Assembly: GCA_001786765.1 (NCBI GenBank)
Contig: MFTH01000013.1
Location: 83,974-125,899 of the forward strand
Direction of reading: 5' to 3'
DNA: 41,926 bases
Origin: Candidatus Nomurabacteria bacterium RIFCSPHIGHO2_01_FULL_37_25
GTDB lineage: Bacteria; Patescibacteriota; Minisyncoccia; Phycocordibacterales; UBA9973
In this document: one piece after another, positions 1,824 to 25,367 of the stretch
How the letters are laid out: the number at the start of each line of letters is the position of its first letter
Numbering within the stretch: position 1 is the stretch's first letter
Notes under the pieces: generated by a model
The model's input: only the letters and a program-made list of their open reading frames with translations
The model's database searches: none
Told to the model about the DNA's origin: nothing
Program-made: the position numbers and the translations under genes

Positions 1824-1827
1824 TTGA

Positions 1828-2411: not shown

Positions 2412-2419
2412 GCATAATT

Positions 2420-3097: not shown

Positions 3098-3128
3098 ATT
3101 TTTTTTTCTTATATTTCTAATTTGTCTT

Positions 3129-3551: not shown

Positions 3552-3556
3552 AAGTT

Positions 3557-5845: not shown

Positions 5846-5901
5846 TCTTAATTTATTTTACCTTTTCTACCCAACAACGAATTCATTTACTGCCAAACTT
5901 T

Positions 5902-8106
5902 CTAGTCTCTAACTATAATATTGATAGTAACAGTTGCAGAGGGCGTAGCCGAATCGTTTATTTCAACCCAAGTATTACGATTTTCATTTGCGGCAGTGAT
6001 GGTAAAAGTATTACCGGTAAGCTTTGATGATTTTAGTTTATGAAAGTCACCTGCCCTAAGTCCTAGCGTATAAGGTTCCGTGCCGCCTGATATGGTCACG
6101 CTCGCCGTCTGGTTTTCATGAATAGAAATATAGCTTGACGGACTAACTACCAAGGTCGTCGGCGCGTCAGTTACTGTAATTGTGGCGCTTGCTTGTTTTT
6201 CTGGTGTGGATGAATCTTTGATAATCACTCCCATTTGTTCATTACTTGTGACTCCAGTAATTATTAATTGTGATGAATCAGTTTCAGAAATTTTTACAGT
6301 TGCTCCCACGCCTGATACATTTTCTATAGAATAAGGTCTTGTTCCGCCGTCTATGATTACAGTTTTCTCTTCTCCGACAGCGACGGAAATATCTTGTTGG
6401 ATATTTAATTCTTCTTGGCTTGTTATTCTAATATCAACTCTTTTTTCTTCACCTAGAGAATCTTTTATTATGACAAAAGTTTCACCTTCATTAACACCGC
6501 TTATTACTAAAGAATTAGAAGCAAAGGTTGCTATCGCGATGTTTTGATTAGGATATGCGCTTATGTTATAAGGTCCCGTTCCCCCATCTATTCTTGCGCT
6601 GAAGATATTACTGACGCTGGTTGATATACAAGCATTATCGACATCAATCGTTGATGTACAGTTTGTTGGGATTATTGCCAGCGCTCCGATAGCATTTACT
6701 TCAATTCTAATTGAAGCTGTGATTTCTGAATCAGAGGAATCTTCGATTGTGACTTCGGTGGTGCCTGGAGCGACGCCTGTAACTGAAAGTTTTGTTCCAG
6801 AGGCGCCAGAAGAATCAATTTTAGCGGTTGCTATTCCCGAGTCTGGCGCAGTTTTTATATTATAATCTCCAGAGCCACCAGATATAGGCGCGCTAGTTGT
6901 TTGCCCGACTCTTATAGAAACATTTGTTGGGATGTTTAAGGTTGCCGGCGCGTCGCTGGGGTAGTCGTCTAGTGTTACTGGGTCGCCTAGAGGGTCGTCA
7001 TAGCTCCAATTGTCGCTTCCTCTACCGCCTTCACCACCTCCACTGAATGCATCTGAAAGTGAATTCAAGCCTACTTCTAAGAACTTACCTAATAGCGCGT
7101 CAAAAATAGCCGCCAAGCTGTTGCCTATAGCGCCGTCAAGCGCAGTTTGCAGAAAAGGAGTTTCTAACGCGCTGAATACTTGGTTTGCCGCCACAGATCC
7201 GGGGGTGGTGTTTACTAAACGCGGACAATAATTTTCCTTTTCCCATTCTTCGGCTGCTTTATTATATCTATTCATGAAATCATCGTTAGATTCGCCTGGG
7301 TCCATGGTTGGTCCTTTGAATTTTGGTCTTACAAATTCGTTTATGCCATTGTTATATTTTGGATTGTCCGGACATGTTTGTGGCGACAAAAAGCCCATTC
7401 CTTGCTGTAATGCGTCGCGCACTTTCTCCGCCGGCGCTTGGAATACCCCTTCTAGTCGGCTTGCCAGATTTTCTTGTACTATCATCTGGAATCCTAAATA
7501 ATTATTTTGCGGATATTGGGTATTTATCAAAAATCCATTCCATCCTCCGTAATTGAAATCGTTCCTGTATCTAACCAATAAATCAGGGTCATTTATGACT
7601 TTACTTAAAGTGTATTGGCTATTTTCATAAAGTTGGCTTTTATAACTGTCTATTACACCTAGCGCGGTTTCTCGGCCGAAAGGAAAGTGAAAAGTGTCAT
7701 AGCCTATCATATCCACTAAATTCCTAACTTCATTTTTTGCTATGTCTTTAAAGAAAGAGTCTGGGTTTTCTAGGAAAAGGGGCGCTCCGTGAAAACCAGA
7801 GTTTATCCAGTTTATTGTGGATTGAGTCATTTCCGCTAAAAGTCTTTTTGCTATCATTTTAAGAATTTGTTCAAGAACTGTTTGCGCCCAGTCTTTGAGA
7901 GTAGTAGCGGTATTTGTGAGTGTTGAAGCCAGGTTCAGTTTTTCAAGAGCTGCAGTTAAAGCAGTTTTGATTCTAACAACAATATCATCCACTAGTACCC
8001 CCTGCGCTTCCGCTTGTTTGGGTCTAGAAAGTAAAACATTCGGCAACAATATTGAGATTATCAATATAAAGGAGATAAGTTTTGTTGTTTTGTTTTCTTT
8101 ACTCAT
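5902..8106 (-). CDS. Secreted T4SS-associated protein: helical N-terminus plus four Ig-like repeats
   Basis: Signal peptide LISFILIISILLPNVLLSRPKQAEAQ; repeats with GG(S/T)xxPY/DYNI ... GxTxVxIxDS... Confidence 0.7.
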   Translation of the reverse strand: MSKENKTTKLISFILIISILLPNVLLSRPKQAEAQGVLVDDIVVRIKTALTAALEKLNLASTLTNTATTLKDWAQTVLEQILKMIAKRLLAEMTQSTINWINSGFHGAPLFLENPDSFFKDIAKNEVRNLVDMIGYDTFHFPFGRETALGVIDSYKSQLYENSQYTLSKVINDPDLLVRYRNDFNYGGWNGFLINTQYPQNNYLGFQMIVQENLASRLEGVFQAPAEKVRDALQQGMGFLSPQTCPDNPKYNNGINEFVRPKFKGPTMDPGESNDDFMNRYNKAAEEWEKENYCPRLVNTTPGSVAANQVFSALETPFLQTALDGAIGNSLAAIFDALLGKFLEVGLNSLSDAFSGGGEGGRGSDNWSYDDPLGDPVTLDDYPSDAPATLNIPTNVSIRVGQTTSAPISGGSGDYNIKTAPDSGIATAKIDSSGASGTKLSVTGVAPGTTEVTIEDSSDSEITASIRIEVNAIGALAIIPTNCTSTIDVDNACISTSVSNIFSARIDGGTGPYNISAYPNQNIAIATFASNSLVISGVNEGETFVIIKDSLGEEKRVDIRITSQEELNIQQDISVAVGEEKTVIIDGGTRPYSIENVSGVGATVKISETDSSQLIITGVTSNEQMGVIIKDSSTPEKQASATITVTDAPTTLVVSPSSYISIHENQTASVTISGGTEPYTLGLRAGDFHKLKSSKLTGNTFTITAANENRNTWVEINDSATPSATVTINIIVRD

Positions 8107-8156
8107 TTTTATTAGTTATTATACCTTTTTCTGCGTGGCAATAAAACCTTTTTCTG

Positions 8157-9005
8157 TTATTGGGATAATTTTTGACTAACTGCTGTGAATAAATTACCCA
8201 AAGATGACTCTAGTTGATTTACATTTTTTTGATAATTGCTTATTCCGCCTAATGTCATTATAGGATCGCTATCATATAATCTGATATCGCTTAGATTTTC
8301 TATTATTCTTTCGTGTGAATTTATTACCTTTAAGTGTAAATCTGAAATAGATTGTGGCACTCTTGTTTTTATCAATTCTTCCATTACTTTATTCATGTTT
8401 TTAATGATAGGATCAAGTTTTGCTAAAACGCTGGCATCAACATTGTCTTCATCAACGATAAATTCTTGAAGCACATCAAGCACAGTATAATTTATTCCTG
8501 AATTTTTTGTATAAATACTATTCAAAGCATCGTTATAATTTTTAAAAGCCTGAACAGTATCGTTGTTTACCACTTTTACATCAAAAATTGAAAATACTTT
8601 TCTAGGTGGAGAATTTTGCACTTTCTCTGCCAAGGAGCTGGTTAATTTTTCTATTGAGGCTTCGTTCACAGCTCCATTTTGGCTAGCTGACACGATAGTC
8701 GCAAAAAGTTCTCTGGAGAATCTTTCAGTCGCTGTCAGGTTTTCCGTGTCTGAATTTATTTTTTCTATTGTTCCTGCCAGGTCTGCTTTTGTATCTTTTA
8801 ATTTTTCTATCGCCACACTGTCCGGTGTTCCGGGTGTGGTTTCTTTTTTCGTTGGGTCAAGCCCAAACAAACCTTCTTGCCAATCCGGCACTTTGTCGCC
8901 ATCAGCATCTTTAGTTACTAAATCTTCCAGAGTCAAATCGCCATAAATCAATCCACTTTCTTTATTATTTTTTTGATATGTTTCGGTATTTTCAAATGTC
9001 GGCAT
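8157..9005 (-). CDS. Ca-binding-motif (TSP3/EF-hand-like) protein
   Basis: KDADGDKVPDWQEGLFGLDPTKKETTPGTPD; an open frame with a predicted TM helix continues upstream of the ATG to about 9092. Confidence 0.6.
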   Translation of the reverse strand: MPTFENTETYQKNNKESGLIYGDLTLEDLVTKDADGDKVPDWQEGLFGLDPTKKETTPGTPDSVAIEKLKDTKADLAGTIEKINSDTENLTATERFSRELFATIVSASQNGAVNEASIEKLTSSLAEKVQNSPPRKVFSIFDVKVVNNDTVQAFKNYNDALNSIYTKNSGINYTVLDVLQEFIVDEDNVDASVLAKLDPIIKNMNKVMEELIKTRVPQSISDLHLKVINSHERIIENLSDIRLYDSDPIMTLGGISNYQKNVNQLESSLGNLFTAVSQKLSQ

Positions 9006-10564: not shown

Positions 10565-10602
10565 AAGCTGTGAGATTTTGTTTAATAATTTCTTACAGTT
10601 TA
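10565..10602. terminator. weak bidirectional hairpin between convergent genes
   Basis: AAGCTGTGAGA...TCTTACAGTTT imperfect stem between 9254..10531(+) and rsmA(-). Confidence 0.3.
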
Positions 10603-11564
10603 GTCAGCGTAATCCAGTCTACCAAAGTTAAATCTTCCGCCCTTTTATTCCCCAATTCTGTCAAATATGTCAAAGTGTCTCTTTGACATACGCTTTTTAG
10701 GTTACTGGAGAGTTTTTTTCTTTTATGCGCAAAGCCAGCTTTTACTATTTTCCAGAATTTTTCTTCAAAATCTTGACTGTTCCAAGTTTTATCTTGAACA
10801 GTCGTTTTGCCTCCCTCTCCTTTATAAGGAGAGGGCTGGGGTGAGGTAAATATTTTTCGTGAGATGTTTTTTATAGCGATTATTGCTGAATTTACTTTTG
10901 GCGCCGGAGAAAAATATCTTTTATCAACTTTGGCGATCATTTTTACTTCTCCATATGCTTTGACTGAAATAGATAAGATGCTTTCTTTCTTGCCCGCCGA
11001 AGCTTTAGCGGAGGAGGGGCTATTTCCCAATATTCTTTGAGCCACTTCGTGTTGAACCATCAATACCATGCTTTCGGGTTGATTTAATCCTCCCAAAAAT
11101 TTTTTCAAAATCGCGCCGGTGATGTTGTAAGGGATATTAGCGATAATTTTATAGGTACTAGGCTTCAGGCCGTAGGCATTAGTATTAAAATCTAAAATAT
11201 CTCCGCATACTAGTATGAGAGTATTTAATTTTATCTGTTCAGCAAATTTGTTCTGCAAAATTTCATAAAGTTCTTTATCTTTCTCTATCGCTAGAACCTT
11301 GCACCTAGTCCCTAACAACTTTTCTGTCAGCGCTCCTTTACCGGGACCTATTTCTAGTATTATATCGTTCTGTTTTATTTCTCCCGCTTCAACAATCTTG
11401 CGGAGCGCTGTTTCAGATTTTAAAAAATTCTGCCCCAAAATTTTTCTTGGCACGAACTTTTTCTGGGTACGGATTTTTTGAAGCTTAAAAAATCCTGAAA
11501 TTGGCTCGCCGTCGCTCGCCAAACCCCCTCCAAAAGTTGTGCCTGCGACAAATTTTCTTTTCAT
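10593..11564 (-). CDS. rsmA: 16S rRNA dimethyladenosine transferase RsmA/KsgA
   Basis: PRKILGQNFLKSETALRKIVEAGEIKQNDIILEIGPGKGALTEKLL; ANIPYNITGAIL. N-terminal extension and two internal repeat-coded insertions. A GTG at VPRKILGQNFL is an alternative start. Confidence 0.95.
   Translation of the reverse strand: MKRKFVAGTTFGGGLASDGEPISGFFKLQKIRTQKKFVPRKILGQNFLKSETALRKIVEAGEIKQNDIILEIGPGKGALTEKLLGTRCKVLAIEKDKELYEILQNKFAEQIKLNTLILVCGDILDFNTNAYGLKPSTYKIIANIPYNITGAILKKFLGGLNQPESMVLMVQHEVAQRILGNSPSSAKASAGKKESILSISVKAYGEVKMIAKVDKRYFSPAPKVNSAIIAIKNISRKIFTSPQPSPYKGEGGKTTVQDKTWNSQDFEEKFWKIVKAGFAHKRKKLSSNLKSVCQRDTLTYLTELGNKRAEDLTLVDWITLTKL
10810..10846. repeat. CCCTCTCCTTTATAAGGAGAGGG palindrome in rsmA (TSPQPSPYKGEGG)
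   Basis: 10-bp perfect stem with 3-nt loop; in frame. Confidence 0.7.
10990..11020. repeat. GC-rich palindrome in rsmA (SPSSAKASAGKK)
   Basis: TTGCCCGCCGAAGCTTTAGCGGAGGAGGGGC. Confidence 0.6.
11437..11562 (+). repeat. composite palindromic element, copy B (62-bp core 11466..11527)
   Basis: Core GGTACGGATTTTTTGAAGCTTAAAAAATCCTGAAATTGGCTCGCCGTCGCTCGCCAAACCCC with partially complementary flanks. Confidence 0.75.
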
Positions 11565-13726
11565 ATATAAATCGTCTTTATTCTATCTTTTTCTCCTTCT
11601 TTTTCTAATAAATCTGCTGGAATGTCGCTGATAAACTCTGATGGAGCATTAATATTGCGAGCTCCAAAAATGGTGCGAAAATTCGCAAATGATAAAAACA
11701 ATTTTTCTTTAGCGCGGGTGATTGCCACATAAAAAAGCCTGCGTTCTTCTTCCTGCGCCTCGCCGTAGCCTTGCGCGGAGGTGGAGCTATCTTCATTATG
11801 ACGCTCATGCGGGAAAAGTCCGTCTTCTAGTCCTGTGATAAAAACATGTTTAAATTCAAGCCCTTTTGAAGCGTGCACAGTCATTAACTTGACCGCATTT
11901 ATTTTTTCTTTTTTATCTTCATTAATTATTAGTGAATCTTGGTCTGAAGCTAGTGAAGCGTCTTCCAGAAGTTTTTCTATTCCACGACCGTTTTCTAGGT
12001 TGTCATATTTAAGAGCCAATGTTGCCAACTCTTTTATGTTTTCCAGTCTTTCTTTGTCTTCTTCTGTGCCAGAGGAAAGTTCATTTTCAATGCCGGACTT
12101 TTTTACCACAAATTTGATTACTTCAGATGTTTTTACTTGCTCTATTTTTTCTTTTATCTCTTCCAGTATTTTGTAAAAATTATCAATTTTAATTTTCATT
12201 TTTATGGGCAGGTTTTCGATATCATTGGCCCAGCCTTCGCCGAGGCTTCGGCGGGGCGAAGCAAAAATTTTGATTAAAGTAACTTTGCCTATGCCTCGCG
12301 CGGGGAAATTTATTATTCTTTTTATGTCTCCTAGACTATTTCTGTTTAAGGCTGCGCGCAAATATGCTAAAGTGTCTTTTATTTCTTTTCTTTCAAAAAA
12401 TTTAATTCCCAAAACTTGATACGGAATATTGTATCGTAGCATCGCTTCTTCTAAGGCTCTGGATTGGAAGTTTGCTCGATACAGAATGGCAATTTCGGAG
12501 AGAATGTTCTTTTTTTCATAAACGGAGCTGTCAGCAGGATCATCTTTTGTGGGGTCGCTGTCTCCGCGTGCTCGCGGAGCGCTGCCTCTCGGCTCGTCAG
12601 CCTGCGAGACACCCCAAAAAGATGATCCTGCTTCAGCTATTTCTAAAATCTTTGTGGCCACGAAGTCGGCTTCGTCATTTTCATCTAGCGCTTCATACAG
12701 TCCTATCTTTTCTCCCAGATCATTTTTTGTAAATAAATTCTTGTCCGGTCTGTATTTATTTTTTTTAATTACCACATTCGCCGCCTCCAAGATGTTTTGT
12801 GTTGAGCGATAATTCTCTTCTAGTAGAATTATTTTTGCATTCGGATAATCCTTCTCGAAATTTAAAATATTTTTCAAATTCGCTCCCCGCCACGAATATA
12901 TATTTTGATCTACATCACCAACTACACAAATATTTTTATTATTTTCTGCCAGCATTTTGGCCATCAAATACTGTACTTCGTTGGTGTCTTGATATTCATC
13001 TATGTGGACATATTTCCATTTTTCTTGATAAATTTTTCTAATTTGTTCATTTTCCTTCAACAATTTTGCCGCTTTTAAAAGCAAGTCGTCGAAATCCAAC
13101 GAATTTTCTTTTATTTTCTTTTTTTCATATAAATTCCAAACTTGCGCCACGATTCTCCCGAAAGAATTCGCGCTATTTATTTCTTCATAATCCGCCAAAT
13201 GCGTGAATTTTCCCTTCTCCCGCGAGATGACATTTTTTATTTTCTTCGGGTCATATTGCTTCGGGTCAATAGCAAGCTCTTTTTCCGCTTCTTTTATCAA
13301 ACTCGTGGCGTCATTCTCGTCTAGAATAGTGAAATATTTTGTCAGCCCTAAAATCCGCGCATTTTCTTTTATTATGTAAACTCCGAGAGAATGAAAAGTA
13401 GAAATAAAAGGTTCGCGATATTGCGTTCTGTCACCACGAAAATTTTCTACTGAAAATTTTCTCTGTCCGTCGTCGCCACTCCTCCCAAGGGTTCCATAAC
13501 GCAATATCGCTTTCTCTATCCGTTCGCGCATTTCTTTGGCGGCTTTATTGGTAAATGTTACAGCCAAAATATGCTCTGGCGACACGCCATTTTTTATCAG
13601 ATTTACTATTTTATGCGTTATAGTTTTAGTTTTCCCCGCTCCCGCGCCAGCTATAATAAGCAGTGGACCATCTATATGTTCCGCCGCTTCTCTTTGTTTT
13701 TTATTCAAGCCTGCCAGATGTTGCAC
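11561..13726 (-). CDS. UvrD/PcrA/Rep-family DNA helicase
   Basis: LNKKQREAAEHIDGPLLIIAGAGAGKTKTITHKI; VHIDEYQDTNEVQY; ENYRSTQNIL; LMTVHASKGLEFKHVFITGLEDGLFPH. Carries palindromic in-frame insertions. GTG start. Confidence 0.95.
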   Translation of the reverse strand: MQHLAGLNKKQREAAEHIDGPLLIIAGAGAGKTKTITHKIVNLIKNGVSPEHILAVTFTNKAAKEMRERIEKAILRYGTLGRSGDDGQRKFSVENFRGDRTQYREPFISTFHSLGVYIIKENARILGLTKYFTILDENDATSLIKEAEKELAIDPKQYDPKKIKNVISREKGKFTHLADYEEINSANSFGRIVAQVWNLYEKKKIKENSLDFDDLLLKAAKLLKENEQIRKIYQEKWKYVHIDEYQDTNEVQYLMAKMLAENNKNICVVGDVDQNIYSWRGANLKNILNFEKDYPNAKIILLEENYRSTQNILEAANVVIKKNKYRPDKNLFTKNDLGEKIGLYEALDENDEADFVATKILEIAEAGSSFWGVSQADEPRGSAPRARGDSDPTKDDPADSSVYEKKNILSEIAILYRANFQSRALEEAMLRYNIPYQVLGIKFFERKEIKDTLAYLRAALNRNSLGDIKRIINFPARGIGKVTLIKIFASPRRSLGEGWANDIENLPIKMKIKIDNFYKILEEIKEKIEQVKTSEVIKFVVKKSGIENELSSGTEEDKERLENIKELATLALKYDNLENGRGIEKLLEDASLASDQDSLIINEDKKEKINAVKLMTVHASKGLEFKHVFITGLEDGLFPHERHNEDSSTSAQGYGEAQEEERRLFYVAITRAKEKLFLSFANFRTIFGARNINAPSEFISDIPADLLEKEGEKDRIKTIYI
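12227..12262. repeat. small GC-rich palindrome in the uvrD-family gene (SPRRSLGEGW)
   Basis: GCCCAGCCTTCGCCGAGGCTTCGGCGGGGCGAAGC; related to 31645..31676. Confidence 0.6.
12534..12631. repeat. 98-bp palindromic insertion inside the uvrD-family gene
   Basis: Inverted ends GCAGGATCATCTTTT / AAAAGATGATCCTGC; internal CTCCGCGTGCTCGCGGAG hairpin and TCTCGGCTCGTCAGCCTG block. Confidence 0.8.
13415..13510. repeat. 96-bp palindromic insertion inside the uvrD-family gene
   Basis: Perfect 13-bp inverted ends GCGATATTGCGTT / AACGCAATATCGC; GAAAATTTTC-TACT-GAAAATTTTC inside. Confidence 0.8.
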
Positions 13727-13761: not shown

Positions 13762-14058
13762 CTATTTAGTTAAACTAGATCTTAAATCTTCAATTTTTAT
13801 CTTTTCCGCAAGAATTTTTTTAGCTTTATCTATTTGGCTTATAGCATCCAAGCCTTGCTTTTGTATTTCCGCTATATCTTTTACACCTTTTGTTTCGTCC
13901 ATCAACGCTTCTTCAAAAAACGCAAAAGTTAATTTGTCTTGCATTTCTTTTGGGAATTTTTGCAAATTATTAATTAAAAAAATTCGAGCGCCTTCCTCGT
14001 CATTTTTTTCTACAAAAGTTAGAAATTCATTGTATAATTCTGAAAATGTATTGTTCAT
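13762..14058 (-). CDS. small helical hypothetical protein
   Basis: 98-aa ORF (MNNTFSELYNEFLTFVEKNDEEGARIFL...) following 14074..15135. Confidence 0.5.
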   Translation of the reverse strand: MNNTFSELYNEFLTFVEKNDEEGARIFLINNLQKFPKEMQDKLTFAFFEEALMDETKGVKDIAEIQKQGLDAISQIDKAKKILAEKIKIEDLRSSLTK

Positions 14059-14073
14059 AATTGATTATTTTTA

Positions 14074-15135
14074 TTAGCTTAATGTATTTCTCTTGTCATT
14101 AATGTTTCCTTCAAGCCATGCCGCAAAAATGCTAGCCCAAAATCCTTTGTTTTTCTTATTTTTTTCTTCATATTTTGTCTTTTGTTCAGCAATAAACATA
14201 TCTTTAACAATATCTTGTTCAAGCGTATTTTTCCCCGCATAGTCAGAGCTTGTTTTATATCTTTCCCAGTCTTCATTGAATTCCTTTTCGTCTAAAGTAG
14301 TTTCCTTTTTTGCATCAAGGAATCCAGTCTTTTTTTCTGTTGCCACCGGCGCGCTTTCTGATAGTAATTCTTTAGACAGAGCATCTCTCATATCATCATT
14401 ACCGCTAACACTAGCAAATAGAATAGAACCAATATCGCTCTTATATTTATCTAATTCGGCATAAGAATCTTCAAGTGAACGGGCGGCAGTATTCAAATTA
14501 TTTAAAAGATCTTTATTAAGCCTATTCCACCAAAGCCCCCCATACTTTTTTGCTAGTTGCTTTATCGCTTCCTTCTTTTCAATAGGATCTTTTATTGCCA
14601 GAGTGTCTAAATATTCCTGCGAAGTAATACCATTATCATTCAATAATTTGTCAACTTTATCACTCGTTTCTTTGTCTTTTCCATTCTTAAAACTATCATG
14701 TATATCTATTGGCTTGGCAATTGCATCAAAGCTATCTTCATCATTAAAGCATATTTCTTTCAGCTGGTTGCGTATTACTTTTAAGGCTTTTTTAGGAGTA
14801 AGACTATCAAGTATTTTTGCAAAATCGGGATGCTTGCGCGCAATTTCAATTATGTTTTCTTCGGTCAGTAAATTTTCAATCCTTTCCGATTGAGCGATTT
14901 TTTTTGAAAATTCTACCCTGTATTCGCTAAGAAGTTCAAGATCATCTTTTTCAAGTTTTCCTTCCCTGATTCTTTGCCCCAGATCTTGTTGCCCATCTTT
15001 TTCAAGCAGTTTACCAAAAAGGTCAGACTTGTTTTTATCTTGCAATATTTCCGCTACAGTATGACCTACTGGAGGTGGCGTAGTATGTACTTTATTATCT
15101 TCTTTACTTTTTCTAAAATCGTCCATTATTCCCAT
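14074..15135 (-). CDS. hypothetical helical protein, hydrophobic C-terminal tail
   Basis: 353-aa ORF; C-terminal KNKGFWASIFAAWLEGNINDKRNTLS. Confidence 0.55.
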   Translation of the reverse strand: MGIMDDFRKSKEDNKVHTTPPPVGHTVAEILQDKNKSDLFGKLLEKDGQQDLGQRIREGKLEKDDLELLSEYRVEFSKKIAQSERIENLLTEENIIEIARKHPDFAKILDSLTPKKALKVIRNQLKEICFNDEDSFDAIAKPIDIHDSFKNGKDKETSDKVDKLLNDNGITSQEYLDTLAIKDPIEKKEAIKQLAKKYGGLWWNRLNKDLLNNLNTAARSLEDSYAELDKYKSDIGSILFASVSGNDDMRDALSKELLSESAPVATEKKTGFLDAKKETTLDEKEFNEDWERYKTSSDYAGKNTLEQDIVKDMFIAEQKTKYEEKNKKNKGFWASIFAAWLEGNINDKRNTLS

Positions 15136-15299
15136 ATATTTATCATAAAACTTTTAATCTTAATAAGCTATTTGTAACTAAAGGCTCTCAATATTATATA
15201 AATTAATATTTTTTCTGTCAATTTTCCGTTATATTACTTGATAATTTTCAAATTATATTATACTATTTTTATCTTTTCCTCAAGAATTTTTCTAGAATT

Positions 15300-15626
15300 T
15301 TATTTAATCTGTTCGAGAACAGACAATGATTCATTTCTGAAATTTTCTGATTCTTCTCCAATAATATTCAAAAATCCAGGAACTTTTTCAAAGAAAAAAT
15401 CAAGAACCACATCTGGCATAGCGTTACTTTCTATTAATTTTTCATACTCTTCTAGGTCATTTTTTTCTAAAAGGGGCAGAACCCTGGTCAATACTGATTG
15501 GAAAATTATTTTTCCAATTCGAGATATCATTTCTTCTTGTTTATCCTCAGGTAATTTGTTGATTCCAAACAAAGTTATAATATTTTTACGAACTTCTTCT
15601 TGCGCTACTAGTGTATTTGTATTCAT
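15300..15626 (-). CDS. small helical protein, possibly DUF5663-like (from memory)
   Basis: LFGINKLPEDKQEEMISRIGKIIFQSVLTRVLPLLEKNDLEEYEKLI...FFFEKVPGFLNIIGEESENF. Confidence 0.5.
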   Translation of the reverse strand: MNTNTLVAQEEVRKNIITLFGINKLPEDKQEEMISRIGKIIFQSVLTRVLPLLEKNDLEEYEKLIESNAMPDVVLDFFFEKVPGFLNIIGEESENFRNESLSVLEQIK

Positions 15627-15656
15627 ATTTTTAATTTCATTATTAATAATTTTATA

Positions 15657-18600
15657 TTAGACTTTTATAATATAGTTTTTTACTTCATCTAATTTTCCCA
15701 TTTCAGCCGCTTTTTGCAAGGCTCGAGCAATGTAGTGTTCTGTATTTTCTTTTTTCCAGAAAAAGCTATCAGTTGGTCTAAGACCGGTGTATTCTTGAAG
15801 TTTGTGAATGTATACAAGAAAATGATTTTCCGGATCTTCTTGTTTTAGTAAATTTCCAACATTAGAATATCTTATTTTTTGCCATTCATTTATTTTCTCA
15901 CCAGAGAAAATTCCTTTCAGAATTTCTTGATGAGTTTGATAAACCCCTATTAACCCTTCCCCGCTTAAATGAAAAGGATTTCCAATAATAAATTCAGGAT
16001 GTTCCTCTAATAAACGACTTTGTTCCATAGAAATATCTGAAAAAAGTTGGCCCCGATTTATACTGAATCCAAATGTATTATCATTTTGCCCAGCGTTTCT
16101 TTGTATACCAATTCTTCCTATTTCCTCAGGTATTTCAGCATACTTTTTTAGTGTATTAGCTCTTGCTGTCTCTATGGGAGAATTATTTTTATGTTCAGGA
16201 TTAACTTTTTCAATATTATCTGAATCAAACATTGCCCCAGTGTATTTTTCTACATCTTGTCCAATTTTTGCATCATGAAAAATTATTTTCCCAGTTGTTT
16301 CATCGTACTTTAGACTTGATCCTTTCATAATGTATGCGCTTTCTGCAGTGTTGTTGGGGTCATAGAAACCTAAGTCTATCGCTTGTCTAGTAGCGTTCGT
16401 GTCTTTCAAAAATTCTTGGATATTTTTTGGTAAAACTGTAATATCTGGATATTTAGCTCTAAGATCTGCCTTGAAATCAATCAACCCTTGTATACCACCC
16501 TTTCCTTTGTCAAAAACATAACTTCCTTCTGGTGTTGTTTCTTGTGTTTCAATAGTAGATGTGTTAAAAGACGCTGGGATAACAGTTGGTGTTGTATGGT
16601 CAGAAGAAGCCCCTGGCTCATGTGTTTTTGATGGTGTAGTTGTGGGTGTTTTTGATCCTGATTCAATACCTAAAGCTTGAGCTGCATTTTTCGGTAAAGT
16701 TTCGCTTCTTTCAAATCCTCCATTTGCATTATATATATTATATGTTCCATCAGGAAATATTTTATACTTAGCTCCTCCCGATCTTTCTGCGTATATTATT
16801 TTTTTTCCATTTTCATAAGTTTCCCGTAATTTTGTTATATTTGGATCTACTTTTTTCAGTTGTGTAAGTTTTTCATCGAGAGTCTTTGTTGGGTTTTTAG
16901 CTTCAGCTGTTTCTGTCGTTTTGTCTTCAGACTCTATTTTTTCTTCTGCAGGTTTTTGACCACTAGGAGTATCTATTTCAGGTTTTGGTGGAGTTTCTGG
17001 TTCTAATTTAATACCCAAAACACTTTTCATATTATCTGCTATAGTTCCTTTGTCATAAAGTATTTTCTGGTTATTATAAGACTCATATTTTCCATCAGGA
17101 AATATTTTATGCGTATATCCATTATCAGATTTTAAAATAAAGGTTTTTTCTCCTCTTCCATTGACTCCCCCCTGTAACTCTTTTATAAATGGAAATATTT
17201 TTTTCACCTCTGTAAGTGTTTCTAGTTCTTCAGGAGACATGCTTGTTTCAGTTGAAACCGGTGGTTGTTCTGTTCTTTCTTGCTCTTGTATTGGCTGGGG
17301 TGGTTGTAAAGCTTTTTCCATTTTTGGTGGAAGGGAATCTCCTTTAGTAAATAATTTTCCATCTATATCATAAAGTTCATAAGAATTTTTATCAGGAAAT
17401 ATTTTATATATGTATTCGCTTTTTGGGTTTTTTGCAAAAAATACTTCCTCCCCGTTCTCTTCAATTTTCTGTACTTCTGTTATAAATGGATCGAATGGTT
17501 TCAATTTTGTAAGTACTTCATTTTCTTCGGGAGACATATCTCCAGTAAATACAGACTGGTCTAATGCATTAGTTTTTGTTGGCGATTCAACATTTGGTAG
17601 TTGAGTTCCTTGCCGTAATCTATTAAAGGGTGAGTTCTCAAATGCTTGATGATTTGCGTTTATTGCAGTCATTGTGCCGAGACCAACTCCAATCGTTAAA
17701 GCTCCACCAAGAATATTTTTTGCCCATTGGTATCTTTTTAATTTTTTTCCTATATCATTGTTATATGTGTTTTCATATGTATTCAAAATATCAGCTAAGT
17801 TAGTTTCATTAAAAGCATCTGAGCTGATTAAAGGACTCATTTCGTGTTTATTAGATATTTTTTCTTTTAAATCTTTTATTTTTTTATCGATAAAATAATT
17901 TAATGCTCTTCTTCCAGCAAACCCCCCAGCTGCAACACCAGCCACTATACACCCACCAAATAAAAAGGAAATACTAGTTCCTCCAAGCATTGCAAGATTT
18001 TGAATAGTGAAAATCTTATTTTTTTTGTTTTCATCCCCCTTCTTTTTAAATGACTTTAGGTGTTCTATGAGTTCCGAACCTGTTTTTGAAGTTAGTGCCA
18101 TATTCAACCCTACAGCAGCGCTCACTCGAGCACCCAATCTAGCTGAAACCATAAGCGCTGATGATGAACCAATGCCGAGAAGCGCCGCAGAAGCTAATGT
18201 TGCTCCCCCAATCAAGGCAGTACTAGAAAAAACCTTGAACGCTTTTCCTTTTTTAGTTTTTTCTAAATTAGCCCACCATTTATTGGTTTTAGCGAGAGGT
18301 CTTTCTAGAAGACCAGTTTTAGCGATAGCTTCAGCATCAAAATCTTCTTTTGCTTTTAAGAATAGTTCTCGCGCTAATTCTTCTTTTTTTTCTGTGGAAA
18401 GACCAGGTTGTTTATTTAATTCTTCTTTGATCCTTTGCGCTATAGCTACTGTGTCCATCTTTGATACTGGTTTTATAACAGGATCTGTTTCATCAATTTC
18501 TGACTTACTCTTTTTTGTTCTAGCTTTTTCAAGAGAAGCTTTTAATTTTTCAATGTCTTCTGCTCTTTTACGTCTCTTTTCTTTTAATTCCTCAAGAGCT

Positions 18601-18710
18601 TTTTCTTCTGGATCTGTTTCATCAATTTCTGGCGCACCTTCTTTTTCTGCTCTTTTTAATGCTTCTTTTTCTCTTTCTGCTTTTTTTAATGCGTCGTATG
18701 TTTTTGACAT
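15657..18710 (-). CDS. large membrane-associated repeat protein (1017 aa)
   Basis: N-terminal MSKTYDALKKAEREKEALK; Gly/Ala-rich TM segments; three about-60-aa YKIFPDG repeats; unique C-terminal domain. Confidence 0.65.
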   Translation of the reverse strand: MSKTYDALKKAEREKEALKRAEKEGAPEIDETDPEEKALEELKEKRRKRAEDIEKLKASLEKARTKKSKSEIDETDPVIKPVSKMDTVAIAQRIKEELNKQPGLSTEKKEELARELFLKAKEDFDAEAIAKTGLLERPLAKTNKWWANLEKTKKGKAFKVFSSTALIGGATLASAALLGIGSSSALMVSARLGARVSAAVGLNMALTSKTGSELIEHLKSFKKKGDENKKNKIFTIQNLAMLGGTSISFLFGGCIVAGVAAGGFAGRRALNYFIDKKIKDLKEKISNKHEMSPLISSDAFNETNLADILNTYENTYNNDIGKKLKRYQWAKNILGGALTIGVGLGTMTAINANHQAFENSPFNRLRQGTQLPNVESPTKTNALDQSVFTGDMSPEENEVLTKLKPFDPFITEVQKIEENGEEVFFAKNPKSEYIYKIFPDKNSYELYDIDGKLFTKGDSLPPKMEKALQPPQPIQEQERTEQPPVSTETSMSPEELETLTEVKKIFPFIKELQGGVNGRGEKTFILKSDNGYTHKIFPDGKYESYNNQKILYDKGTIADNMKSVLGIKLEPETPPKPEIDTPSGQKPAEEKIESEDKTTETAEAKNPTKTLDEKLTQLKKVDPNITKLRETYENGKKIIYAERSGGAKYKIFPDGTYNIYNANGGFERSETLPKNAAQALGIESGSKTPTTTPSKTHEPGASSDHTTPTVIPASFNTSTIETQETTPEGSYVFDKGKGGIQGLIDFKADLRAKYPDITVLPKNIQEFLKDTNATRQAIDLGFYDPNNTAESAYIMKGSSLKYDETTGKIIFHDAKIGQDVEKYTGAMFDSDNIEKVNPEHKNNSPIETARANTLKKYAEIPEEIGRIGIQRNAGQNDNTFGFSINRGQLFSDISMEQSRLLEEHPEFIIGNPFHLSGEGLIGVYQTHQEILKGIFSGEKINEWQKIRYSNVGNLLKQEDPENHFLVYIHKLQEYTGLRPTDSFFWKKENTEHYIARALQKAAEMGKLDEVKNYIIKV

Positions 18711-18720
18711 ATATGCTTAA

Positions 18721-18834
18721 TTATTTTTTCAATGCCTTTTGCATTAGAGCCAACTCAGGATTAGTCCTCGCAATAAGTTCTTTGTTGTCTCTGTCACTTT
18801 CGTCTAGTTTTTCAAGGGCTTCTTTAATTTTCAT
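18721..18834 (-). CDS. 37-aa small ORF between the two MSKTY proteins
   Basis: MKIKEALEKLDESDRDNKELIARTNPELALMQKALKK*; below the ORF-track cutoff; ends 10 nt before the next start on the minus strand. Confidence 0.4.
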   Translation of the reverse strand: MKIKEALEKLDESDRDNKELIARTNPELALMQKALKK

Positions 18835-18859
18835 CTTTTTTCTTTTTTAATAATTTCTT

Positions 18860-19366
18860 TTAACGTTTTCTTAGTTTTTCCACATTTTTTTTAATTTGCA
18901 TCTTTTTTTTAAGAGCTTCTTTTAACCTTTCCTCTAAAATCTTATCTTTCTCATCCTCTGCGATTTCTTTTCTAAGCCTTCTTTCTATTTCAGCAATCCC
19001 ACCTACTTTTTCTGGGTCTGCTTCTTCATCAGCCATTTTCCAACCCTCATCTTCTTCCATTTCTTCTAAAAATATATTTCTTTTTTCTTTTAAAGATTTT
19101 ACAGGTGTAGCCGTTTCTTCTTCTGGCGCTTCTGCCGCTGCCGTTTTTACAGGTGCAGGTGCAGATGTAAGTGCGAATGTTGCTTCAGGTTCAGTTGATA
19201 CTTTTCCTTCAGCTTCTGCTAAAGCCACCAGTGCACGCCGTAAATCTTCTCTAGTTTTATTGTCGCTTTCTTCTATCTCTGCGTCTCTTTTTCCAATATC
19301 TCTGAGAGTTTTTTCAATTTCCTGTTCTCTTTCTACTCTTTTTAATGCCTCATAAGTTTTTGACAT
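18860..19366 (-). CDS. coiled-coil protein with MSKTYEALKR N-terminus
   Basis: MSKTYEALKRVEREQEIEKTLRDIG shares its N-terminal motif with the 1017-aa protein; LRRALVALAEAEGKV resembles the 957-aa neighbour. Confidence 0.55.
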   Translation of the reverse strand: MSKTYEALKRVEREQEIEKTLRDIGKRDAEIEESDNKTREDLRRALVALAEAEGKVSTEPEATFALTSAPAPVKTAAAEAPEEETATPVKSLKEKRNIFLEEMEEDEGWKMADEEADPEKVGGIAEIERRLRKEIAEDEKDKILEERLKEALKKKMQIKKNVEKLRKR

Positions 19367-19399
19367 ACATTTATATTATATAATAATTTAAACTTTATG

Positions 19400-22273
19400 T
19401 TATTTTTCTAATCCTGCTAAGAGTCTATCATATCTGGCGTTGATTGCCTTTATTTCATCGATTGTTGTTTCGAGTCTTTTCAAGTAAGAATCTTCTCCTG
19501 ATAATAGTTCTTTGGAATAGTTTAATTTTTCTGTGTAATATTCCAATGGTGAAGTCCTTATGGCTTCCAAATCTTCATCAATTTTCTGTTCTTTCCAGAG
19601 TGGGAGTGGTCCTGATCTAAGCGTCTCTGTTTTATCTTTTATATCTAACACAATCATCTCGATACTATTTATTCGTTCTTTCCTTTTTCTTTCTAAAAAT
19701 CCTCTTTTCTCCCCCACTGTCTTAAGAGATTCCATTTCTCTTATTTCCATTTCAAAATCAAATTGATCGAGCTGTTGTGTTTGATATTCTTCTGCTTTTT
19801 TATAGAGTAAATCATTTCCTGTTTCAAAATCAAGGTCATCTGCTTCCAAACTACCGTCTGGGCGATAAAGTTCAAATTTTGATTTTGGATTTCCAAGTTC
19901 TATTACACCCATTGCATCTCTTGGGGTTTCTTTTATATTTTTGAGTCTCAAATAAAATCCGTTTGAAGAAAAATTAGTGGCATTATTTGTGTAGTCTTCT
20001 ATATACTTATACAAATTCCAAAATTTCAAATCTTTACCATCCTGTGGCATCGCATTATTAATACTTTTGAGTGTTTCTAAATTAAGTTTTTCTTTGTTCG
20101 TATCAAATAAAATTTCAAAATTTATCGGGTGTAATTTACCTATTAAGTAATATGTGAAAGGATTTTCTTTCCTGTGTTCCAATATAGCTATTTGCTCTTT
20201 CAAATTCTTACGCTTGAACGGTCTAATTTTAGAAGTTTTTTCTAGTTCTGATCTGAGTAAAGCTAATCTGGATTCAAGCTCGTCTAAATCAGGAATTGGT
20301 CTTATTGGATTTTGATTTTCTGATGGTGTTGCTATTTCTGGAGGTTTTTTTCCCTTAAGTTCTGCCAACTCTCTAAGCAAAGCTTCTCTTTTGACTCTAT
20401 TTTCTTCTCTTTCAACCCTATTTCTTTCAAGTTTTATCTGCGCAGTTGCTATCGTTTCGTTTAGTTTTGCTATTGCAACAGCTTTTGCGTCTGCTTCTGT
20501 CTTTATCGGCTCTGAAACGGCTGGTTCAGCCGTTTCTTCAGCTGCTGCCAAAGTCGCCAATGCTTCTGCATTACTTCTTTTCGCTTCTGCTATAATCCTT
20601 CTAAGTTGTTCTGCTCTTATTTCGTCGTCTGTTTTCTGACTTTCAAATAAAGCTAGTTGTTTCTTTTGATATTCTTCTGCTCTCTGTCTCATTAATCTTT
20701 GCCCCTCTTCATAACTTAGCGAATCTTCCCCAGTAAAATATTCCCAATTTGGATTCACCAATTTATATTTTGCTCTTGGGCTACTTGTAAATATTCCTTT
20801 TTTGCCATCTTCTCCCTTACCTCGTACTTCCTCCACATTTTGCAATTGTAAAGTAAATCCGTTAGATGATAGTTCTACCGTATTACTTTTCCCTGGTAAA
20901 ATAAGTTTAGAAGTAAAAAATTTTACTTCTCGACCAGATTCTCCACAAGTTCTATTAATATCCTCGAGCGTAGCTTCTGCTTTTCCTTTTGAGAATAAAC
21001 ACCAAAAGGCTGCATCACTCATATTTTCTATTACAAAATATTTAAAAGGATTTTGTACTTTATCTTTCTCCAAAGCTTCCTTTGATGCCTGTTCGGGTGT
21101 GGCAGAAGCTGTGATTGACGCTTCTCCTGAATCTATTTTAGCTCGAGCAATCCTCCTTTCAATCTCTGCTAACTCTTGTGTAGCATCAGCTATAATTCCT
21201 TCATTTTTTACTATTGTCTCTCCAAGCGTTGCTTTTGCGTCTGCTTCTGCGTTCGGTCCTGGAGCAACTTCTGCCATTGATGTTTTAGATTCAGGTTCAG
21301 TTGTTTCTTCTTCTAATGGTTGTCTTTCATCTCCTTCTTTGATTAGTAGTTGTACCACATTCCCTGCAGTCTCTTGAGATTTTTTGATACGCTCTCGTTC
21401 TTTTAGGATTGTGAGAGCCTCTCTTGAATTTTTTATAAACTCGTTTATTCGTTCAGTTTGTGTGGAATTTGGGTCTACTTCATATCTAGTTTTTTCTATA
21501 TATATAATTTTTTTCTCTAAATATTCAATACCTGTAGGCAACATAGAATTTTTGAGATATTCATCAACCGACTCCCCAGTTTTTTTTAGAAACTCATCTT
21601 CCATTTTTTCTAGTTCACTTATTGGTATTGTTTCTCTCCTTATTATTGGTACTTCTTCTCTTGGTACCATTAGAACCTCCGGCTTTGCTTCTATCGGTAC
21701 TTCTTTCCTTGGTACTGATTTTACTGTTTCTATAAATGTTGATTTCACCTCTAGTCTTGTTGGCCCTCTTCCTAATCGTACTTCTTCCTCTACTGGTATT
21801 TGTGCCGGAATATCCTTTGATTCTACTTTTTCTAGCTCTGGGGGAAGATCCAAAGTCTCCATAGCTTCTTTTTTTAAAGTTCCTTTACCAAGTCGTTTTC
21901 CAGCTTCATCATAAAACTCATATCTTCCATTAGAAGATAGCCTATAATAATTTTTAGCTTTAGTTGTTGCAACAATTATTCTTTCTCCATTTTCACCAAT
22001 CTCTTCTTTTAGTTCGGTTATATTTCTATCTATTTTTTGAAACCTTTCAAGCCTTTCTTGTTCTGCTTGCGCTTTTATTAACCTTGCCTGCCTTTCTTTC
22101 ATTTTTTCTAATATACTTTTTTGTTTTGGTTGCGGAGCGTCTACAGACGGAACTGTTTTTTCAGCTTCTGCCAAAGCCGCCAGAGCTTCTTTGTTGTCTT
22201 TGTTCGCTTCTTCTATAACAGCTCTAAGTTTCTCTGCTCTTATTTCATCCGCTGTTTTTGATTTTTGTTCCAT
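19400..22273 (-). CDS. large coiled-coil protein with duplicated domain (957 aa)
   Basis: Two copies each of EIRAEKLRxxIxEAxxxNxEALAxLAxAE and a NPFxYxxI...AEEYQxxQL domain; one YKIFPDG-type repeat. Confidence 0.65.
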   Translation of the reverse strand: MEQKSKTADEIRAEKLRAVIEEANKDNKEALAALAEAEKTVPSVDAPQPKQKSILEKMKERQARLIKAQAEQERLERFQKIDRNITELKEEIGENGERIIVATTKAKNYYRLSSNGRYEFYDEAGKRLGKGTLKKEAMETLDLPPELEKVESKDIPAQIPVEEEVRLGRGPTRLEVKSTFIETVKSVPRKEVPIEAKPEVLMVPREEVPIIRRETIPISELEKMEDEFLKKTGESVDEYLKNSMLPTGIEYLEKKIIYIEKTRYEVDPNSTQTERINEFIKNSREALTILKERERIKKSQETAGNVVQLLIKEGDERQPLEEETTEPESKTSMAEVAPGPNAEADAKATLGETIVKNEGIIADATQELAEIERRIARAKIDSGEASITASATPEQASKEALEKDKVQNPFKYFVIENMSDAAFWCLFSKGKAEATLEDINRTCGESGREVKFFTSKLILPGKSNTVELSSNGFTLQLQNVEEVRGKGEDGKKGIFTSSPRAKYKLVNPNWEYFTGEDSLSYEEGQRLMRQRAEEYQKKQLALFESQKTDDEIRAEQLRRIIAEAKRSNAEALATLAAAEETAEPAVSEPIKTEADAKAVAIAKLNETIATAQIKLERNRVEREENRVKREALLRELAELKGKKPPEIATPSENQNPIRPIPDLDELESRLALLRSELEKTSKIRPFKRKNLKEQIAILEHRKENPFTYYLIGKLHPINFEILFDTNKEKLNLETLKSINNAMPQDGKDLKFWNLYKYIEDYTNNATNFSSNGFYLRLKNIKETPRDAMGVIELGNPKSKFELYRPDGSLEADDLDFETGNDLLYKKAEEYQTQQLDQFDFEMEIREMESLKTVGEKRGFLERKRKERINSIEMIVLDIKDKTETLRSGPLPLWKEQKIDEDLEAIRTSPLEYYTEKLNYSKELLSGEDSYLKRLETTIDEIKAINARYDRLLAGLEK

Positions 22274-22378
22274 AAAATAAAATTTATAAATTAATTTTTA
22301 CCTTTATATTATTTATTGAATGTAGTTCTTGCTAGTAGCATATCATATCTGGTATTAATTGCATTTATTTATTGCTCT

Positions 22379-24052
22379 TTATTTTGTGGGTTCTTTATGG
22401 GAAGCTGGGATTGACGCTTTCCCTAAATCTGTTCTAGTCTGAGCAATCCTCTTTTCAATCTCTTGTAATTCTTTTACAGCATCAGCTATAATTTTTTCAT
22501 TTTTTGCTATCCTTTCCCGAAGTTTTGCTATCTTTTCAGTTCGCTCTTCTGTTCCAGAATCAGCTCTCTCGTCTTTCTCGCCACCCTCCCCTTTCGTATC
22601 TCCTACGAGCTCTTTGGGTCTCTTGACAGATTCCAGTGATGCTTCTTGGGCAGCTTCTCTTTGAGCATACGTGCTATGTGTCGCTGTCAGGTCCTGTGAT
22701 ACTTCGGTCTCCGATCTCCTCGCCTTGAGAACTATTTTTGTGTATCTAGGACCTGGGGTACAACTTACCTCTTCAATAGTAATGGGTTCGCCGTCGACAG
22801 CCTGGGGGATGAGATCAATGCTGAATTCTACCAGATAACTTGCACCATCTTTAATTTCTACTGCTGGCCATAATGACTCGTCTTCTCCGAAGCCCCGTTC
22901 CACTTGCAGATAGAAAAAATTTGCATCGGTCTGCGAAGATTGGAGCACACTTTCAAGCTGAGCTGACAAGCCGAGCTTTCCAGCAATTTTTAGCACATCG
23001 TCTTTAGAGATGTTAATACGATCAAGATCGACACTCCGTACCAGTAATTTTCCTGATTCGTGCACTCCATTTAGGTGTCCATATGTTTCGTACCCTCGGG
23101 CGCTCTTTTTTTGGTTAGGGAACAATTCTACTAACGAATATTCATGTTGTTTCCGTGGCATCTCGCCAAATTCTAGTGGTTTTCTTTGCTCCGGTGGTTT
23201 TGCTATTTCTCTCACAAGGGCTATCGCCTCTTCTCCACTCATATTATAAAAACGGGGTTTTCTAGAATGATTTAGTAATTGTATAAGCTCCTTATATCTA
23301 GCCGTCTCTTCTTCCGGGAGACATCCCTTGCTAAACTTATTAAGTATCATTTGGAGACCATGAAGCACATTTGTCTTTTTTACTTTTTCGCTCACATGCC
23401 TTTCTTCGACAACCCCATCCACATCACGAAATCCGGTTGAATTCCAATCAAGCACCACCAAACGACCATTCTCCGGTATATAATAGAAATCATCAAGTTT
23501 TCTGTCGGTCGTTTGAAGATTCAAGGCAAAAACCACCTCAAGAATTTCCATGTACTGCCGCAGCACGTCCTTGGCTCTTTCTTGGTGACTCTGGAAAACT
23601 TTCTCCATCTCGCTACCCGACATGTGAGAGGATTCTTCCATAAACTCAAGCACGAGGGCGGGCTTTTCGTTTATTTCAATCAATCTGGCGGCAGGAAAAT
23701 GAGATGGAGTCCCGGGGAACATCTCCTCTTGTTTCGCCTGCAAAAGATGAATTACTTTCTCTTCATCAATGATGTGTGGCTCCCAACTCTCTTTCAGAGG
23801 AATCTTTACAGCAACAGGGAGCCGCATGCCATCACTCATAGTCAGATCTGCCTGTAATACCCTGCTCGTTGCTCCGAATCCGAGCTCATTATCACGCTCG
23901 TACTTGGCCTTTCTTATTTCGAGCGAAAATTTTACCCCCGGTTCCGCCCAAGATTTAGGTTGATCGGTTGTTTTAATAATAGGTTCTTTAAGTATTTTAT
24001 CGCCAGAAGCAATTACTGACGACTGATCTATTTTTGTAGGCCGTGGTTCCAT
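22379..24052 (-). CDS. divergent protein-kinase-fold protein with C-terminal coiled tail
   Basis: ERDNELGFGATSRVLQADL...LPVAVKIPL (Gly loop, VAxK), TTDRKLDDFYYIPENGRLVVLDWN (catalytic-loop and DFG-like positions). Confidence 0.5.
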   Translation of the reverse strand: MEPRPTKIDQSSVIASGDKILKEPIIKTTDQPKSWAEPGVKFSLEIRKAKYERDNELGFGATSRVLQADLTMSDGMRLPVAVKIPLKESWEPHIIDEEKVIHLLQAKQEEMFPGTPSHFPAARLIEINEKPALVLEFMEESSHMSGSEMEKVFQSHQERAKDVLRQYMEILEVVFALNLQTTDRKLDDFYYIPENGRLVVLDWNSTGFRDVDGVVEERHVSEKVKKTNVLHGLQMILNKFSKGCLPEEETARYKELIQLLNHSRKPRFYNMSGEEAIALVREIAKPPEQRKPLEFGEMPRKQHEYSLVELFPNQKKSARGYETYGHLNGVHESGKLLVRSVDLDRINISKDDVLKIAGKLGLSAQLESVLQSSQTDANFFYLQVERGFGEDESLWPAVEIKDGASYLVEFSIDLIPQAVDGEPITIEEVSCTPGPRYTKIVLKARRSETEVSQDLTATHSTYAQREAAQEASLESVKRPKELVGDTKGEGGEKDERADSGTEERTEKIAKLRERIAKNEKIIADAVKELQEIEKRIAQTRTDLGKASIPASHKEPTK

Positions 24053-25338: not shown

Positions 25339-25367
25339 AGTAAGTTCTAAAACTGCAAAGAATTATG

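What the first reader, a model, noticed from the sequence alone, without database searches (positions are those of the whole stretch)
13762..24052. Module-sharing cluster of coiled-coil/repeat proteins led by a kinase-like ORF: candidate undescribed system
Seen: eight co-directional minus-strand ORFs in about 10 kb (557-aa kinase-like, 957, 168, 37, 1017, 108, 353, 98 aa), mostly closely spaced. Adjacent products exchange modules: MSKTY(D/E)ALK N-termini, YKIFPDG repeats, EIRAEKLR..LAxAE segments, and a coiled tail shared by the kinase-like and 957-aa proteins. Apart from the kinase-like fold I recognise no characterised family. Inference: a co-evolving multi-protein assembly (scaffold, surface or secretion-linked) near the T4SS-like operon. 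Function unknown.
Basis: partly seen in the sequence, partly recalled or inferred. Interest (0 to 1): 0.8.

Follow-up and report, generated by a model that had tools for sequence, protein, structure and literature searches.

The report
Variable gene slot beside type IV secretion
In a group of tiny bacteria thought to live on other bacteria (Candidatus Nomurabacteria), a fixed chromosomal slot next to the type IV secretion genes holds a fast-changing set of large proteins that share a new tail domain, and this tail follows the secretion machinery around the genome, so these proteins are candidates for what that machine docks or delivers.

Summary
In detail: eight co-directional minus-strand ORFs with exchanged modules at 13762-24052. 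No ORF passes a Pfam, NCBIfam, PADLOC or PHROG cut-off. Comparison with relatives changes the interpretation. The block fills a fixed slot between a divergent LysM/M23 peptidase gene and uvrD-ksgA-T4SS (PrgI, VirB4). Across Ca. Nomurabacteria the slot is 15 bp to 10.5 kb long; the window's is the longest. The gene set is not conserved. The core is: a large protein with a C-terminal ~104-aa helical domain (33 of 45 filled slots), plus an adjacent ~100-aa acidic DUF5663 protein. Kinase-like ORF, 957, 168, 353 and 98 aa products are rare or unique cargo. The key result is that the C-terminal domain tracks the T4SS. Where the M23|uvrD slot is empty (two other families), the domain's gene sits at the T4SS coupling-protein (VirD4-like) locus. 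In a third family coupling protein and domain share the slot. In Nomurabacteria the coupling-protein locus lacks it. Most likely the domain docks a variable protein on the T4SS with DUF5663 as chaperone (inferred, about 0.45). The kinase-like ORF has kinase motifs but no profile match. No PDB fold matches the C-domain. T4SS export is untested.

The parts
22379..24052 (-). 557-aa kinase-like ORF (G-loop/AxK at aa 58-83, DRKLDDF..LDWN at aa 183-204); orphan cargo, GC-rich relative to its surroundings
   Evidence: motifs vs shuffles; no profile hit; no homologue of the kinase domain in searched genomes; GC3 of aa 1-470 0.404 vs window genes 0.285 sd 0.052
22427..22576 (-). coiled tail of the kinase-like ORF shared with the 957-aa ORF
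   Evidence: HMM E 3e-24/3e-21; 80% DNA identity over 129 bp
19400..22273 (-). 957-aa repeat/coiled-coil protein with no predicted membrane segment; accessory
21131..21259 (-). copy of the coiled-tail module in the 957-aa ORF (aa 339-381)
20636..21073 (-). 957-aa ORF, repeat domain copy 1 (aa 401-546); domain found in 8 genus slots
19754..20185 (-). 957-aa ORF, repeat domain copy 2 (aa 697-840)
18860..19366 (-). 168-aa protein; MSKTYEALK N-terminal module shared with the 1017-aa ORF
   Evidence: E 3e-31
18721..18834 (-). 37-aa ORF, coding status unknown
   Evidence: sequence of the gap
15657..18710 (-). 1017-aa core protein of the slot (C-domain protein)
   Evidence: partial homologues in 27 of 148 other relatives searched; core of 33 of 45 filled slots
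17649..18371 (-). glycine/alanine-rich hydrophobic region (aa 114-354), present in 18 genus loci
16662..17597 (-). three FPDG beta-rich repeat units (aa 372-683)
   Evidence: most of each unit at pLDDT 70-94, with low-confidence linkers
16215..16586 (-). M module (aa 709-832), in 10 genus loci
15687..15983 (-). C-terminal ~104-aa helical domain (aa 910-1008), the conserved core that tracks T4SS genes
   Evidence: 39 proteins in 37 loci; pLDDT mostly 90-97; T4CP linkage
15300..15626 (-). 108-aa acidic DUF5663 protein, partner adjacent to the C-domain gene
   Evidence: all 27 aligned members match PF18908, best E 5e-11; pI of family 4.3-5.1, adjacency
14074..15135 (-). 353-aa protein, accessory; paired with the 98-aa ORF
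   Evidence: homologues in L110, L131, L099 only
13762..14058 (-). 98-aa protein, accessory
   Evidence: homologues in L110, L131
24181..25338 (+). LysM/M23 peptidase, divergent flank of the slot
   Evidence: Pfam E 1.6e-31 and 2.5e-21; match in 71 of 80 genus genomes
10593..13726 (-). uvrD and ksgA, downstream flank of the slot
   Evidence: identified from sequence; conserved order
1..9005 (-). T4SS operon (VirB4/TraG P-loop partial, PrgI, unassigned membrane or secreted proteins)
   Evidence: Pfam; same order in other Paceibacteria

Best explanation
The block is one filling of a hypervariable slot between the M23/LysM peptidase gene and uvrD-ksgA-T4SS. Its functional core is the C-domain protein (1017 aa here) with its DUF5663 partner (108 aa). 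I propose that the C-terminal ~104-aa domain docks the protein on the T4SS, probably through the VirD4-like coupling protein. The small acidic DUF5663 protein would keep it export-competent. The rapidly diversifying N-terminal and middle modules (coiled coils, glycine-rich membrane region, FPDG repeats) would then be presented at, or delivered into, the partner bacterium. The other slot genes would be accessory cargo of the same apparatus, gained, duplicated and spliced locally. Shown here: the slot, its variability, the C-domain/DUF5663 core, and its linkage to T4SS and coupling-protein genes. Inferred: physical docking, chaperoning, export and host contact.
For: Slot at one place in 52 completely read loci, 15 bp to 10.5 kb. 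C-domain in 33 of 45 filled slots, last large gene before uvrD in 31 of 33. C-domain ends within 20 aa of the C-terminus in 36 of 39 proteins, and only 1 of 39 has an N-terminal hydrophobic segment, so Sec export by a signal peptide is unlikely. DUF5663 is in 23 filled slots, next to the C-domain gene in 15 of the 16 slots that have both, pI 4.3-5.1. Outside the genus: same slot in families f15 and f45. C-domain gene adjacent to or 1 gene from a T4SS coupling protein in f16 and f72, a few genes away in f62. In f16 and f72 the uvrD slot is empty or nearly so; in f64 coupling protein, C-domain gene and three DUF5663 genes all sit in the slot. In Nomurabacteria (8 of 8 looked at) the M24/coupling-protein neighbourhood, where f16 carries the C-domain gene, is without it. 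The coupling protein was found in all 60 genus genomes searched, as a full-length or partial match. Core evolves fast: 1017-aa median 32% identity vs UvrD 72%. Amidase_2 proteins occur in two slots. The T4SS of an epibiotic Patescibacterium is essential and proposed to export proteins (PMC10633639).
Against: No export, binding or host-contact evidence of any kind. At most two C-domain proteins were seen in a genome, unlike the many effectors per genome of known T4SS killers. The C-domain matches no T4SS signal family in Pfam and no PDB fold. 12 of 45 filled slots show no C-domain at the threshold used, and 7 of 52 slots are empty. Half of the C-domain proteins have internal hydrophobic segments, which fits a membrane-anchored component as well. 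The coupling protein was reported non-essential or not recognised in the one genetically tested Patescibacterium, which is of another class (PMC12102498, PMC10633639).
Confidence: 0.45

Rival explanations
1. The core is a T4SS-associated scaffold or regulator that stays in the cell: the C-domain and glycine-rich membrane region tether cytoplasmic coiled coils, kinase-like, PP2C and TPR proteins to the T4SS base and control its assembly or firing.
For: No signal peptides; the FPDG and N-terminal modules are shared between the 1017-aa protein and soluble partners; a true Pkinase in slot L108 and PP2C in slots L110 and L100 although such genes are rare in the genus; one copy per genome in nearly all.
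Against: Very fast evolution and complete turnover of the N-terminal parts fit an outward-facing role better; peptidoglycan amidases in some slots.
Confidence: 0.27
2. A generic integration hot spot: unrelated genes land between two stable blocks, with no joint function.
For: Cargo differs in almost every genome; some slots hold HepT/AbiEii-like or EamA genes; kinase part is compositionally foreign.
Against: C-domain core recurs in 33 of 45 filled slots in fixed position and moves with coupling-protein loci in other families; slot genes are nearly all co-directional with uvrD.
Confidence: 0.13
3. One reading: a self-contained multi-protein assembly of all eight products, surface or secretion linked.
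For: Shared modules among adjacent products.
Against: Products do not co-occur: kinase domain unique, 168 aa unique, 353+98 in 3-4 loci and there without the 957 and 1017 partners. Shared modules are explained by local duplication and splicing (77-80% DNA identity).
Confidence: 0.08
4. A polymorphic toxin/immunity locus: the C-domain protein is an antibacterial toxin and the DUF5663 protein its immunity partner.
For: Variable large gene next to a small gene; PG amidases in some slots.
Against: Here the tail is conserved and the front variable, the reverse of classical polymorphic toxins; DUF5663 is conserved while the front of its partner changes, which fits a shared chaperone better than a specific immunity protein; no toxin domain found.
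Confidence: 0.07

Closest known systems
XVIPCD effectors of the Xanthomonadales X-T4SS (PMC6536674)
   Same: Variable proteins joined to a conserved C-terminal domain of ~100-120 aa; partly encoded by T4SS genes; small adjacent partner gene.
   Different: No sequence match (Pfam); one or two per genome instead of many; no Q-rich tail noted; partner is a conserved DUF5663 protein, not a specific immunity protein; monoderm-type T4SS.
Surface adhesins PrgA/PrgB of Gram-positive (MPF-FATA) conjugation systems (own knowledge)
   Same: Large proteins encoded upstream of an MPF-FATA T4SS, thought to act in cell-cell contact.
   Different: Those carry Sec signal peptides and LPxTG anchors; the proteins here have neither a signal peptide (1 of 39 has an N-terminal hydrophobic segment) nor a recognised adhesin domain.
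Patescibacterial T4SS (PMC12102498)
   Same: Same virB4/PrgI operon with ksgA nearby and M23/LysM proteins; the window flank is this system.
   Different: The sections of that paper read here describe conserved T4SS parts found by profiles; the slot, the C-domain and its coupling-protein linkage are not mentioned in them.
Pfam PF18908 DUF5663
   Same: The 108-aa ORF family belongs here (27 of 27 members match).
   Different: Function unknown; no paper in the library names it.

Membership tests
XVIPCD-type T4SS effectors | C-terminal XVIPCD sequence family | tested here: not met
   no XVIPCD family listed among Pfam hits of 96 slot proteins
XVIPCD-type T4SS effectors | conserved domain at the extreme C-terminus, variable front part | tested here: met
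   36 of 39 end within 20 aa of the C-terminus
XVIPCD-type T4SS effectors | binds VirD4 and is secreted by the T4SS | not testable with these tools
   only genomic linkage to VirD4-like genes shown
Protein kinase (PF00069 superfamily) | profile match over cut-off | tested here: not met
   no Pfam kinase hit at E 0.1, genus kinase HMM no better than shuffles
Protein kinase (PF00069 superfamily) | G-loop, AxK lysine, catalytic D, metal-binding D in order with kinase spacing | tested here: met
   both motif blocks present, 4 and 11 of 200,000 shuffles, none with both; the patterns were written with the sequence in view
DUF5663 (PF18908) | profile match | tested here: met
   family-wide match, best E 5e-11; the window member alone is below the cut-off, E 0.007
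LPxTG/Sec surface adhesin | N-terminal signal peptide | tested here: not met
   1 of 39 C-domain proteins has an N-terminal hydrophobic segment
Anti-phage defence system | match to a PADLOC model | tested here: not met
   no hits
Prophage or phage island | match to PHROGs | tested here: not met
   no hits; kinase ORF not found in viral contigs
T4SS operon protein of 275 aa as a DUF5663 relative | profile-profile match between the 108-aa and 275-aa families | tested here: not met
   hhalign probability 2.7%

The most novel reading that the evidence does not exclude
The C-terminal ~104-aa domain is an unrecognised T4SS docking/translocation domain, and the C-domain proteins are the first known, hypervariable, substrate or tip-protein family of the Patescibacterial T4SS, with DUF5663 as their secretion chaperone.
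Probability: 0.35. Interest if true: 0.85.

Novelty: new variant of a known kind. Interest (0 to 1): 0.62.

Why it matters
The T4SS of Patescibacteria is widespread, essential in the one tested epibiont, and, as far as the papers read here say, without a known substrate (PMC10633639, PMC12102498). A gene family that stays with either its virB4 operon or its coupling protein, is one of the fastest-changing products of the region, and carries a constant tail gives concrete candidates and a testable docking domain. The slot may also serve as a marker of partner specificity in uncultured Patescibacteria.

Tried and rejected
(1) Kinase as leader of a system: kinase domain unique to this genome; tail shared with a neighbour by local duplication. 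(2) LysM identity of the M module (from memory): no Pfam LysM and no PDB fold match; dropped. (3) Homology of the 108-aa protein with the 275-aa T4SS-operon protein: 2.7%. (4) Defence island or prophage: no hits. (5) PDB fold search of the whole 1017-aa model and of its C-terminal part: nothing at E<=0.001; weak matches of the FPDG repeats to the TCP10 domain only. (6) C-domain alignment as query in the genome collection: too divergent for pattern search.

Full report
OBSERVATION. None passes a cut-off in Pfam, NCBIfam, PADLOC or PHROGs. The module exchanges are real: the N-terminus of 168 and 1017 aa (E 3e-31), FPDG units in 1017 (three) and 957 (one), the coiled tail in the kinase-like ORF, in 957 and in slot proteins of one relative (L063), and a duplicated domain inside 957. 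DNA identity of the clearest shared parts is 77-80% over 110-130 bp, so they arose by fairly recent local duplication or recombination.

ORGANISM. The genome (726 kb, 98% complete) falls in a group whose named members are Candidatus Nomurabacteria (contigs matched by exact length: MFTY01000021.1, CALRDL010000001.1, CALRAL010000004.1). Taylorbacteria, Kaiserbacteria, Zambryskibacteria and Wolfebacteria are more distant relatives.

A SLOT, NOT A FIXED CLUSTER. In nearly every relative read, the order is CCA/poly(A)-polymerase-like gene, UPF0102, M23/LysM peptidase (divergent), a variable stretch, then uvrD, ksgA, three operon proteins, PrgI and VirB4; one genome (L151, G051) has uvrD and the C-domain gene further from M23. 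In 52 loci with both flanks the stretch is 15 bp to 10,455 bp; seven are empty and the window is the longest. In more distant Paceibacteria the flanks persist and the slot is often empty. Slot genes are almost all co-directional with uvrD. The window gene set does not recur: the kinase-like domain was found nowhere else (149 relatives, 286 class and 380 phylum genomes, genome and viral contigs), 168 aa nowhere, 353+98 in 3-4 loci, the 957 domain in 8.

THE CONSERVED CORE. A C-terminal ~104-aa domain of the 1017-aa protein is found in 39 proteins of 37 loci. It is in 33 of 45 filled slots, in the last large gene before uvrD in 31 of 33, and ends within 20 aa of the C-terminus in 36 of 39. Only one of the 39 proteins has an N-terminal hydrophobic segment and 20 have a hydrophobic segment anywhere. 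Its neighbour is the 108-aa protein, a DUF5663 member (27 of 27 members match), ~100 aa, pI 4.3-5.1, found in 23 filled slots and adjacent to the C-domain gene in 15 of the 16 slots with both. AlphaFold gives the C-domain pLDDT mostly 90-97, yet no PDB structure matches. The front parts turn over almost completely between genomes.

THE LINK TO TYPE IV SECRETION. Searching the order with the C-domain alignment found it in other families. In f15 and f45 it is again in the M23|uvrD slot. In f16 and f72 it lies adjacent to, or one gene from, a full-length VirD4/TraD-like coupling protein (T4CP), and in f62 a few genes from a T4CP cut by the contig end. One f72 contig (L160) did not show a T4CP. 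For f16 (G104) and f72 (G225, G266, G354) I read the M23|uvrD junction too: it is empty or holds one small opposite-strand ORF. In f64 (G152) the T4CP itself, the C-domain gene and three DUF5663 genes all sit in the M23|uvrD slot, which is followed by uvrD, ksgA and T4SS genes. In eight Nomurabacteria genomes the T4CP locus has the same neighbours as in f16 (M24 peptidase beside T4CP) without the C-domain gene; in the window genome the M24-T4CP gap is 18 bp. Thus the gene occupies one of two T4SS-linked sites. If T4CP has about ten neighbours among roughly 800 genes, chance proximity is about 1% per lineage, so recurrence in four families is not chance (rough estimate, families taken as independent).

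THE KINASE-LIKE ORF. Motifs GFGATSRV...VAVK (aa 58-83) and DRKLDDFYYIPENGRLVVLDWN (aa 183-204) fit a kinase fold with the key residues kept; profile tests fail. The patterns were written with the sequence in view, and the spacing in the second was corrected once after a first try failed on it, so the shuffle counts overstate the case somewhat. The first 470 codons have GC3 0.404 against 0.285 (sd 0.052) for the window genes, the tail 0.295. This suggests an acquired domain joined to a local tail. Another slot (L108, genome G036) holds a true protein kinase, and two slots hold PP2C phosphatases (L110, which also has the 353+98 pair; the L100 assignment rests on its motif plus the family count). 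Only 4 of 80 genus genomes have a kinase over the cut-off, so signalling enzymes may be over-represented in slots, but numbers are small and the genome search missed the L110 PP2C.

HOW IT MOST LIKELY WORKS. Shown: slot, turnover, core, T4SS linkage. Inferred: the C-domain docks on the T4SS or its coupling protein; DUF5663 acts as chaperone; the variable modules act toward the partner cell; cargo genes are accessory. A non-exported scaffold or regulator of the T4SS is the main rival. Literature context: the T4SS is essential for epibiotic growth in Ca. Southlakia epibionticum, with export of proteins suggested (PMC10633639), and virB4 of Patescibacteria lies near ksgA (PMC12102498). In the parts of these papers read here the slot is not described.

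MEMBERSHIP AND NOVELTY. It works like a C-terminally tagged T4SS substrate family (compare XVIPCD effectors, PMC6536674), but is not a member: no XVIPCD match, one or two per genome. I rate it a new variant of a known kind.

LIMITS. Gene calls are simple longest-ORF calls. 'Filled' was set at 1500 bp; the full loci include one same-family genome (L046) outside the genus. Some loci are contig-broken in the slot. The 37-aa ORF may not be a gene. Hydrophobic-segment counts rest on a hydropathy window, not a dedicated predictor.

Noticed in passing
window 25517-26764: 415-aa AT-rich ORF (GC3 0.195) on the far side of the M23 gene, with only a sub-threshold Pfam hit; in relatives this place often holds an unrelated ~249-aa membrane protein.
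   Followed up: partly
window 9254-10531: Opposite-strand ORF with peptidoglycan-binding (PF01471) domain between ksgA and the T4SS operon; present in some relatives (L039, L042, L054) and absent in others, a second variable site.
   Followed up: no
window 25367-28095: Four tRNA genes (Gly, Pro, Gly, Arg) spread around the M23/UPF0102 region.
   Followed up: no
L129 (G045), slot genes of 536 and 344 aa: Two slot genes with GC 16-17 points above uvrD, likely recent imports.
   Followed up: no
G014 (several contigs): This Nomurabacteria genome has about six kinase-domain genes on small contigs, unlike its relatives; possible contamination or an expansion.
   Followed up: no
L104 13435-15522 and L112 13320-15494: Slot genes encoding N-acetylmuramoyl-L-alanine amidase (Amidase_2) domains in ~700-aa proteins.
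   Followed up: partly
L159/L275 (G152): About 17 kb slot carrying T4CP, C-domain gene and three DUF5663 genes, each DUF5663 gene next to a larger unknown gene (321, 654, 332 aa): possible repeated substrate/chaperone pairs.
   Followed up: partly
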